DNA of 52,707 nucleotides from an uncultured Methylococcaceae bacterium (GTDB taxonomy: Bacteria > Pseudomonadota > Gammaproteobacteria > Methylococcales > Methylomonadaceae): positions 1 through 52,707 of the forward strand of contig CAIQNQ010000255.1 in NCBI GenBank assembly GCA_903873165.1, in the 5' to 3' direction. Positions 16,220-52,230 of this stretch are shown piece by piece; position 1 is the first letter of the stretch; the number at the start of each line of letters is the position of its first letter. A program made the position numbers and the translations under genes. The notes under the pieces were generated by a model that was not told the DNA's origin, did not search any database, and worked only from the letters and a program-made list of their open reading frames with translations.

Positions 16220-16513
16220 CCTATTTGGCTTAATACATTTGTGATTAGCATTTTTACAAATGAAAAACCGCTTTTTGTAAATCTTATTGGCAGTTTTTAA
16301 TATCCTATTTTGCTTTTTTGATTTCCTATTTTACTTTTTTAATATTCTTTTTCGCTTTTTTAATATTCTTTTTTACTTTTTTGAAATACTATTTCGCTTT
16401 ATACACATCCTATTAGCAGTTTTTAATATTGGAAAATGCTTTTTTAATATCTCATTAGCAAAAGTACATTTATAATTCTGCCTTTTGTATATCTCAACAG
16501 CAAAATAGGATAT
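16220..16513. repeat. Degenerate tandem array of about 14 units, period exactly 21 bp
   Basis: Fourteen consecutive 21-base units can be laid out without a single insertion or deletion. The pattern is CCTATT, two variable bases, GC or AC, a T-run of 4-6, then AATAT or a variant. Individual units differ widely but the phase is kept. One frame is open for 62 codons in heptads rich in Phe, Ile and Leu, starting at a TTG without a good ribosome binding site; I treat it as a by-product of the period, not a gene. T-tracts every two helical turns predict curved DNA. Confidence 0.88.
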
Positions 16514-16633: not shown

Positions 16634-17861
16634 TTAAAAAGCCCGCACTGCCCGTACTGGGAGTGTATTGGCCTTAAAGTAGTTGTCCTGGAGGCCACTG
16701 AAGAAATTCTGGAGCCACGCGGTGTTAGCATCGAGCTCAGTAGAACTCCAGTAGTAGAGAGTAGCAAAACCACCAACACCGACTTTCAAAAGATTTTCAT
16801 ACATCAGCATTAACTCACCTAAAGACGGTAAAAACCATCCAGATGGTGCAGTGGGTGTTGAGTAATTTGTCGCTTCATTAGCCGCACCACTAGTGCAAAA
16901 TGCTAACATAGCCGCCGTATTGGACTGACCTTGCCCAACACCTTTAAGTTTCCAGTATTGAGCTATCGTAGGCGGGGTAGCATAGATAGACGTACCAGAA
17001 TTATTACACCATACAACACCAGCAATATCCGTTGGAGCGGCTTCCAAATAAGTAAAGCCAGGATATTCATCCTCTTTATCAACAAAAAATATCCAACCGC
17101 CACCAGGGCCGACAGCACCTACTTTGCAGGCATCTTTGCCACTTACCCCACAAGTCATTGAGTAGTTAAACCCACCACCTGCTGGCCCAGTTGCACCATC
17201 TGCACCATTGTCGCCTTTTATGCCCTGAATACCTTGTGGGCCAATCGATCCTGTATCACCTTTAGATCCTGTTAACCCAGTCAAACCTTGAGGACCTTGA
17301 TCACCTTTAAGTCCTTGTAATCCCTGAGAGCCTGTGTCGCCTTTTAAACCTTGTAGGCCCGTTAAACCCTGAATCCCTTGTGGGCCAACATTACCTTTTG
17401 CCCCTGTTAACCCGATCAAACCTTGAGGACCTTGATCACCTTTAAGTCCTTGTAATCCCTGAGAGCCTGTGTCGCCTTTTAAGCCTTGTAGGCCCTGAAT
17501 ACCTTTAGCACCAGTTGCACCAACATTACCCTGTATGCCTTGTGATCCAACTGCACCTGTATCACCTTTAAGTCCTTGAGGCCCAGCAACACCTTGTGGT
17601 CCTTGTGGACCTGTTGCTCCTAAGCCTAATACTTGCCAAGCGGTAGTTGCCGTACCAGGATTTTTATTCTTATTGGCGGCAATCAAAGATAAATTAAGTT
17701 TTATTACTAAAAGTAACCACATCACCCGCCGCATAAGTTACCGTTGCAGTCCATCCACCATAGTAAGAACCCAATTTAACCGCCGCTTGAGCTGTATGGA
17801 CATTAATACATAAACACATCAAAGCCGATAATCCGACGTTTCTCAGAAAAACATTTCGCAT
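16634..17861 (-). pseudogene. Secreted collagen-like protein with Lcl/DUF1566 domain, frameshifted near the start
   Basis: The main open part (16634-17734) encodes a collagen-like Gly-X-Y tract (GPQGPQG to GATGPAG, about 50 triplets) and a C-terminal Lcl/DUF1566-type domain (GGWIFFVDKEDEYPG ... SGWFLPSLGELMLMYENL ... YYWSSTE ... PVRAVRAF). Such proteins are surface adhesins. Upstream, from ATG 17861, another frame encodes a signal peptide (about MRNVFLRNVGLSALMCL to HTAQA) and then a carbohydrate-binding-like segment YAAGDVVTFSNKT, which ends at TAA 17694-17696. Removing one A there restores KTYLSLIAANKNKNP and joins the halves, so the intact gene would be about 400 codons. This is a disrupted gene, a phase-variable switch or a sequence error. 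Confidence 0.82.
17281..17495. repeat. Direct repeat of about 80 bp inside the collagen tract
   Basis: 17281-17360 and 17416-17495 are nearly identical and 135 bases apart (45 codons, in frame). They encode the same GLQGLKGDTGSQG-type segment. Such repeats change Gly-X-Y tract length by recombination. Confidence 0.8.
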
Positions 17862-51266: not shown

Positions 51267-51581
51267 CTACGGATAATCCTGCCGGGTTGGCCTGACCATT
51301 ATTTCACTAATGTGTACATGCGCCGGCTGGCTCACCATAAAATGGATAGTATTGGCGATATCTTCACCGATTAACAAGGGGCCGAATTTTTCGGTAAAGC
51401 CATTTACCATAGCCTCACTGTACCCCGCCGCCTCTTGAAACCCACTCAATAATAAACCTGGCTCAATTAATGAGACCCGAACACCTTTTGGACCCACGTC
51501 CAGCATTGTTCCGTTTCTAATGCAACTAACTTTCTGGCTTTCGAGATGGTTTCGTCGCCCGTTCGATTTTGTTACCTTCAA
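51267..51581 (-). pseudogene. C-terminal fragment of an SDR oxidoreductase
   Basis: The end of a short-chain dehydrogenase is clear: GPKGVRVSLIEPGLLLSGFQEAAGYSEAM ... IGEDIANTIHFMVSQPAHVHISEIMVRPTRQDYP. Before about residue 25 the sequence is unrelated, and the Rossmann half and the catalytic Ser-Tyr-Lys are missing. An intact protein would be about 240-250 residues, so roughly two thirds are gone. This is a remnant in a decayed tract, not a functional enzyme. Confidence 0.8.
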
Positions 51582-51716
51582 CCTGCTCAGCAGCGTGTCT
51601 ATACGGCTGTCGTCAATTCACCGACGTTCAATGGTGCTATCGCCGCGTAAACTGTCCGAAGTATTGTTAGTGCTGGATAAACAAACTGGGATTGAAGCGT
51701 TTGTTTAAGTCTAAAC
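51582..51716. other. Junction region with a short inverted repeat
   Basis: AAACAAAC pairs with GTTTGTTT (51680-51687 and 51700-51707) immediately before the 21-bp array. Short open frames on both strands end quickly; none is assigned. Confidence 0.4.
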
Positions 51717-52230
51717 AATTTTGCTATCAGTGCTGACAAAATTTTTTAGCCGCTAACAATTTTTCAAGCAAGCCTTACAAAATTTCTTCCGGTCTAAACA
51801 ATTTTGTAACCAGTGCTGACAAATTTTTTTTAGCAGTAAACAATTTTGTAAGCTGACTTTACAAAATTTTCTCGGATCTAAACAATTTTGTAACCAGTGC
51901 TGACAAATTTTTTTTAGCAGTAAACAATTTTGTAAGCTGACTTTACAAAATTTTCTCGGATCTAAACAATTTTGCAATCAGTGCTGACAAAATTTTTCAG
52001 CAGCCAACAATTTTTCAAGCAGTCTTTACAAAGTTTCTTCCAGTCGAAACAATTTTGCAATCAGTGCTGACAAAATTTTTCAGCGGCCAACAATTTTTCA
52101 AGCCGTCTTTGCAAAGTTTCTTCCGGTCTAAACAATTTTTTAATCGGTGCTCAAAAAAAATTTTAGCAACCAACAATTTTTCAAGCCGTCTTTACAAAGT
52201 TTTTTCCAGTCTAAACAATTTTATAACTCA
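51717..52230. repeat. Tandem array of about 24 units, period 21 bp, with 84-bp higher-order repeat
   Basis: Units of 20-22 (mostly 21) bases each start with CAA and an A-tract/T-tract core (CAATTTTG, CAAAATTTT, CAATTTTTC, CAAAGTTTC). Four unit types A-B-C-D recur in order, giving an 84-base super-unit about six times. A ends in CAGTGCTGA, B in CAGC-CAA, C in AAGC-CTTTA, and D in TCTAAA. The block 51799-51882 is nearly identical to 51883-51966. The short open frames across it read as heptads because 21 bases make seven codons, but 20-base units break the frame, so it is not a gene. Phased A4T4-like cores predict curved DNA. Confidence 0.93.

What the first reader, a model, noticed from the sequence alone, without database searches (positions are those of the whole stretch)
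51717..52230. 84-bp higher-order repeat built of four 21-bp subunits
Units A-B-C-D recur about six times, with the central two super-units (51799-51882, 51883-51966) nearly identical, which points to recent amplification of the 84-mer. The CAAAATTTTG cores are of the A4T4 type known to bend DNA, and their 21-base spacing adds the bends in phase. Iterons of plasmid origins have similar unit length, but no rep gene is seen.
Basis: partly seen in the sequence, partly recalled or inferred. Interest (0 to 1): 0.65.

Follow-up and report, generated by a model that had tools for sequence, protein, structure and literature searches.

The report
Fast-evolving phased DNA arrays beside orphan genes
The repeat is real and is one stray copy of a genus-wide system in methane-eating bacteria, in which members of two families of small unknown proteins sit next to a block of DNA repeats whose letters change quickly but whose repeat length stays at about two turns of the double helix.

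Summary
In detail: 51711-52226 is six superunits of 83/84 bp, each made of four ~21-bp half-units in alternating orientation. Two neighbouring superunits are identical (84/84). It is neither a lone curiosity nor A-tract bending. Related arrays lie at five other places in the genome. One sits 217 bp upstream of a 214-aa gene with no database annotation (helical N-terminus, FN3-like C-terminus).

That gene belongs to a large accessory family (20 copies here; 26 of 35 congeners). Of 60 members with both flanks visible, 49 have a phased array on one side. Base periods are 19.9-22.0 bp in 61 of 62 arrays. The protein tree predicts period and side, yet unit sequences turn over completely (83% identical proteins at one locus, dS 0.35, unrelated arrays). 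A second, unrelated family shows the same arrangement (25/46 upstream, 0/42 downstream). Controls: 2/67 intergenic regions.

So geometry is conserved and sequence is not. My best mechanism is a double-stranded-DNA scaffold for a cooperative, helically phased nucleoprotein complex acting on the adjacent gene. Linkage and geometry are shown; binding and function are inferred. The window's copy is an orphan between an SDR fragment and probable IS1634 debris. I found no published description. Rep-iteron, CRISPR, coding and RNA-hairpin readings were tested and not supported.

The parts
51711..52226 (.). Phased satellite-like array: six 83/84-bp superunits plus a partial seventh; 12 inverted-repeat units of 41-42 bp; 24 half-sites about 20.8 bp apart in alternating orientation
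51794..51961 (.). Two identical 84-bp superunits (51794-51877 and 51878-51961): a recent tandem duplication
51962..52210 (.). Three 83-bp superunits, 83-94% alike; this part is 88% identical to the G021:C104 array
51267..51581 (-). C-terminal fragment of an SDR oxidoreductase (NF038213 SDR_TniO family, E 6e-33), left flank of the orphan array; the intact gene abuts the related array in G021
   Evidence: L025
52211..52552 (-). Right flank: two overlapping frames with weak matches to IS1634 transposase (E 0.015 each), probable insertion-sequence debris
16226..16463 (.). Second phased 21-bp array of unrelated sequence (unit TTTTTAATATCCTATTTTGCT) in the same window, 3' of a collagen/Lcl_C gene

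Best explanation
The array is an orphan copy of a lineage-specific class of phased satellite arrays that normally flank genes of two small orphan protein families (A: ~205-215 aa, helical N-terminus plus FN3-like C-terminus; B: ~230 aa). SHOWN: linkage; period of 20-22 bp (two B-DNA turns); dyad-symmetric units; period and side predicted by the protein tree; complete turnover of unit sequence while the protein is under purifying selection. INFERRED: each array is double-stranded DNA on which a dimeric DNA-binding protein (the linked gene product, or a host protein working with it) sits once per two turns on one face of the helix and assembles cooperatively into a nucleoprotein complex. That complex controls, insulates or marks the adjacent gene. 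Selection acts on spacing and symmetry, while slippage and unequal crossing-over rewrite the letters, as in eukaryotic satellites. The window copy has lost its gene and lies in insertion-sequence debris. My confidence that the class and its gene linkage are real is about 0.9; the figure given below is for the whole statement including the inferred mechanism.
For: Dispersed homologous arrays. One lies 217 bp upstream of a family-A gene, with related leaders at C58, C56, C259 and C108. Of family-A genes, 45/71 have an upstream array at z>=6, all 45 with a phased period; 49/60 have one on either side and only 1 on both. Control 1-kb segments: 3/182 and 1/400; control intergenic regions >=350 bp: 1/15 and 1/52; Fisher p 4e-15 against intergenic. 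Family B, with no detectable homology to A: 25/46 upstream, 0/42 downstream. Free period search over 16-27 bp: 61/62 (A) within 19.9-22.0 and 25/27 (B) within 20.8-21.2. Period and side cluster on the protein tree: 25 changes against 40.3 shuffled, 0/200. Units unrelated between 74-83% identical proteins, e.g. L111/L158 at dS 0.35, dN/dS 0.27. Dyad symmetry: 41/64 arrays p<0.05, combined p 2e-41. No clear RNA-pair covariation, no purine strand bias, no consistent terminators.
Against: No DNA-binding domain is recognised in family A (Pfam, NCBIfam, PDB profile and Foldseek give at most FN3), and the model is of low confidence (pLDDT 64). Binding and regulation are untested. About a fifth of family-A members show no array at this threshold. 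Dyad symmetry is not detectable in about a third of arrays. Constant period could partly reflect how tandem duplications arise rather than selection, although within-array 20/21 alternation and clade-wise 20, 21 or 22 speak against that alone. The orphan copies in this window may have no function.
Confidence: 0.45

Rival explanations
1. The arrays are structured noncoding RNAs: the inverted units form hairpins and the RNA acts with, or on, the neighbouring gene.
For: Most arrays contain inverted repeats; some family-B arrays run close to the start codon and could lie in a 5' UTR.
Against: The 42-bp unit's stem shows no clear covariation (82.5% paired against 81.7% shuffled, 24 of 500 shuffles as high); many palindromes have no loop (GCAAGCTTGC, CTGCAG, GTTAAC); no strand bias; no consistent terminators; no significant Rfam match; the 21-bp mode fits B-DNA, not A-form RNA.
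Confidence: 0.15
2. The arrays are promoter-type variable-number repeats (contingency loci): copy-number change by slippage tunes or switches the neighbouring gene; the exact period is incidental.
For: Upstream position; recent exact duplication in the window; rapid turnover.
Against: Some clades carry the array downstream; period is restricted to 20-22 bp and follows protein clades; length is rather constant (middle half 328-464 bp).
Confidence: 0.15
3. Neutral or selfish satellites that ride with gene duplication: the gene's upstream region carried an array at birth and slippage rewrites it without function.
For: Complete sequence turnover; orphan arrays and decayed leaders; gene-array units dispersed without common neighbours.
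Against: Two unrelated protein families share it; dyad symmetry and two-turn phasing persist through turnover; random intergenic DNA of the same genomes rarely has such arrays.
Confidence: 0.15
4. Plasmid iterons or a partition centromere stranded in the chromosome.
For: 22-bp iterons exist in this genome: L062:10509-10687 lies 150 bp from a Rep_3 gene; the overall form resembles sopC (from memory).
Against: No rep or par gene recognised near this array; about 20 family-A units per genome; the linked proteins match no Rep or ParB model; no plasmid hit.
Confidence: 0.04
5. Intrinsically bent DNA (phased A4T4 tracts) acting as a nucleoid or promoter architecture element.
For: The window array has 0.94 A-tracts per 21 bp.
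Against: A third of sister arrays have almost no A-tracts, and several have GC near 0.5.
Confidence: 0.06

Closest known systems
Iteron arrays of Rep_3-type plasmids
   Same: Tandem ~20-22-bp units in helical register beside a gene; a likely example is in this genome (L062)
   Different: The linked gene is not a replication initiator, there are many copies per genome, and unit sequence turns over while period persists
sopC / ParB-type plasmid centromeres
   Same: About 12 tandem ~42-bp units each holding an inverted repeat (comparison with sopC's 43-bp units is from memory)
   Different: No ParA/ParB model matched; dispersed copies of differing sequence; linked to FN3-like proteins
BIME/REP clusters
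   Same: Extragenic, alternating orientation, tandem amplification
   Different: No fixed REP core shared between loci; period set by helical turns; linked to a specific gene family
Eukaryotic satellite DNA
   Same: Period constrained by a protein ruler while sequence turns over quickly
   Different: Bacterial, ~0.3-0.5 kb, gene-linked, two-turn rather than nucleosome period; analogy only
Promoter VNTR / contingency loci
   Same: Tandem repeats upstream of members of a paralogous family
   Different: Each member has its own unit; period locked near 21 bp; can be downstream

Membership tests
Plasmid iteron array | Adjacent replication initiator gene | tested here: not met
   No rep-type gene among the ORFs near the array; linked proteins have no Rep match. 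Positive control L062 shows Rep3 at 150 bp. The 480 bp to the contig end is all that can be seen on the right
Plasmid iteron array | Direct repeats of ~17-22 bp in helical phase | tested here: met
   Half-unit 20.8 bp, but alternately inverted
ParB/ParR centromere | parA/parB-type genes alongside | tested here: not met
   No recurrent neighbour other than families A and B; no ParA/ParB Pfam match in A or B
CRISPR array | Near-identical repeats separated by unique spacers | tested here: not met
   Contiguous degenerate units without spacers; a real CRISPR was seen at L076:1-420 for comparison
BIME/REP | Shared palindromic REP core at all loci | tested here: not met
   Units unrelated between loci
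Transposon / MITE | Constant ends or terminal inverted repeats | tested here: not met
   Homology of leaders stops at different points (C58/C56 ~280, C259 165, C108 93 bp); no transposase neighbour recurs
Intrinsic bent DNA | Phased A-tracts in all members | tested here: not met
   23/64 arrays under 0.25 A-tracts per unit
Structured RNA | Compensatory base changes | tested here: not met
   14 double changes against 9.8 shuffled, 39 of 500 shuffles as high; no significant Rfam match
Phased nucleoprotein array | A protein bound once per unit | not testable with these tools
   Needs DNA pull-down, EMSA or ChIP
FN3-domain protein (family A) | FN3 fold at C-terminus | tested here: met
   PDB profile hits to FN3 domains; Foldseek hits on a modest model

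The most novel reading that the evidence does not exclude
A previously undescribed bacterial genetic system: small orphan proteins (two unrelated families) each paired with a satellite-like DNA array in which selection preserves only geometry (two helical turns, dyad symmetry, length, side) while the sequence is replaced at satellite speed. It would be a bacterial counterpart of sequence-independent, geometry-read chromatin.
Probability: 0.5. Interest if true: 0.9.

Novelty: categorically new. Interest (0 to 1): 0.78.

Why it matters
DNA elements are usually recognised by sequence. Here the repeat length follows the linked protein's clade while the sequence is lost between close relatives. This makes a concrete test possible of whether bacteria read DNA by geometry. 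It also gives a first handle on two expanded, unannotated protein families in freshwater methane oxidisers, and a ready search rule (period 20-22 bp, within ~0.6 kb of the gene) for other lineages.

Tried and rejected
Coding repeat: rejected, since periods of 20, 22, 40, 41 and 44 occur and no frame is kept. RNA hairpin: no clear covariation, no consistent terminators, no significant Rfam match. Shared leader motif across families: only AT-rich 8-mers, no positional consensus. Shared neighbour genes: at most 5 of about 80 loci. Transposon ends: none constant. Homology of families A and B: none found. Plasmids, phages and viral contigs: no hits, apart from one short weak viral hit. Wider taxa: class and phylum samples (369 and 398 genomes) gave nothing outside the window's own genome for A, and the phylum sample gave nothing for B. 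Literature: nothing relevant in the open-access library. An early random-segment control was spoiled by runs of N and repeated without them. The Fisher value printed used a hand-entered control row; one search has the correct ones.

Full report
Observation. The repeat is real. TRF gives 51709-52226 with period 83 (6.2 copies) over a 42-bp subperiod. The superunits are 83 or 84 bp, and 51794-51877 and 51878-51961 are identical. Across nine arrays of this type in three genomes, 90 units were aligned (87 distinct); their spacing is 41 or 42 bp with a single in-phase 63-bp step, i.e. about 10.4 bp per turn over four turns.

Not a singleton. The window is contig C255 of a 3.46-Mb draft genome. The genome has related arrays at C295, C259, C108 and C263 and a truncated one at C58; two of 34 congeners have this sequence type. 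C295, C58, C56, C259 and C108 share a leader beside the array or its remnant. At C295 that leader is the upstream region of a 214-aa gene. In congener G008 (C234, L098) a 72% identical protein has a related array in the same place.

The gene. It belongs to family A: ~205-215 aa, helical N-terminal half, FN3-like C-terminal half. Pfam, NCBIfam and PADLOC give no confident annotation. G000 has 20 profile matches; 26 of 35 congeners have some, up to 25 per genome. It reaches two other genera of the order but was not seen outside the window's own genome in class and phylum samples. G029, a genome with the family, appears to be a Lac Pavin Methylococcales MAG (contig of the same length and match).

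Linkage. I fetched family-A loci from many genomes (80 distinct proteins) and scanned 1 kb on each side for periodic self-similarity. Upstream, 45 of 71 have z>=6 and every one of the 45 has a period that is a multiple of 20-22 bp. Of 60 with both sides visible, 49 have an array on either side and only one on both. Random 1-kb segments give 3/182 (G000) and 1/400 (G018) phased hits. Intergenic regions of at least 350 bp give 1/15 and 1/52. Fisher p is 4e-15 against intergenic DNA. Median array length is about 390 bp and the near edge mostly lies about 60-280 bp from the start codon. Two clades carry the array downstream instead.

Geometry conserved, sequence not. With a free search from 16 to 27 bp, 61 of 62 family-A base periods fall within 19.9-22.0, with a mode at 21.0. 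The C117/C92 clade has 22.0 in three genera, the C268/C275 clade 20.0 and mostly downstream, most others 21. On the protein tree the period-and-side labels need 25 changes against 40.3 for shuffled labels, 0 of 200 as low. Unit sequences are unrelated between most members, even for many pairs whose proteins are 74-83% identical; the closest pairs do still share units. For L111/L158, which share a ribA-type neighbour, dS is 0.35 and dN/dS 0.27 while the arrays do not align. Forty-one of 64 arrays have dyad symmetry beyond permuted columns (combined p 2e-41; related arrays are not fully independent).

Independent replicate. A noncoding repeat in the random G000 sample led to family B (P0001, ~230 aa). 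It has no detectable homology to A (HHalign probability about 1%) and occurs in 29 of 35 congeners. Upstream arrays: 25 of 46 phased; downstream 0 of 42 (p 1e-9). Base periods are 20.8-21.2 in 25 of 27.

What it is not. Not coding (periods not multiples of three elsewhere in the class). Not a general A-tract bend. No good evidence for RNA structure. Not CRISPR, not a transposon with fixed ends. A likely true iteron array exists in the same genome beside a Rep_3 gene (L062) and shows what that would look like; the window array has no such gene nearby.

Mechanism. The best reading is a double-stranded DNA scaffold for a helically phased, probably dimer-based nucleoprotein complex, coupled to the adjacent gene. 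Linkage, geometry, symmetry and turnover are shown. Binding, the identity of the binder and the effect on the gene are inferred. The lack of a visible DNA-binding domain is the main weakness; a host protein may bind and the small protein may act on the complex. RNA, contingency-locus and neutral-satellite rivals keep real weight.

The window copy. It has no leader and no family gene within 50 kb on the left or 480 bp on the right. It lies between an SDR_TniO C-terminal fragment and frames with weak IS1634 similarity. In G021 the most similar array (88%) abuts the intact SDR gene, on its other side. It is best read as an orphan.

Limits. Draft MAG assemblies, samples rather than whole-genome counts, a low-confidence structure, and an open-access-only literature search. 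'Categorically new' refers to the composite system, and rests on failing the membership tests listed and on not finding a description, not on a demonstrated function.

Noticed in passing
window 16226-16463 (and L068:1787-2157): Phased 21/42-bp noncoding arrays beside collagen/Lcl_C-type genes (window 16634-17734, 3' side; L068 2398-3447, 5' side), suggesting a third gene type with such arrays.
   Followed up: partly
L062:10509-10687 (G000 contig C67): 22-bp iteron-like array 150 bp from a Rep_3 initiator gene: probably a plasmid origin in the same assembly.
   Followed up: partly
L076:1-420 (G000 contig C277): CRISPR array with repeat GTCGCGCCCCGCGTGGGCGCGTGGATTGAAAC just upstream of a family-B gene.
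   Followed up: no
L020:1399-2754 (G000 contig C295): BrxA- and BrxB-like genes (BREX-type defence) directly beyond the array of the family-A gene.
   Followed up: no
L078:11148-11974 (G018): Phased 82-bp-period noncoding array in a complete congener genome with no family-A gene adjacent.
   Followed up: no
window 17268-17530: 135-bp coding repeat within the collagen-like gene.
   Followed up: no
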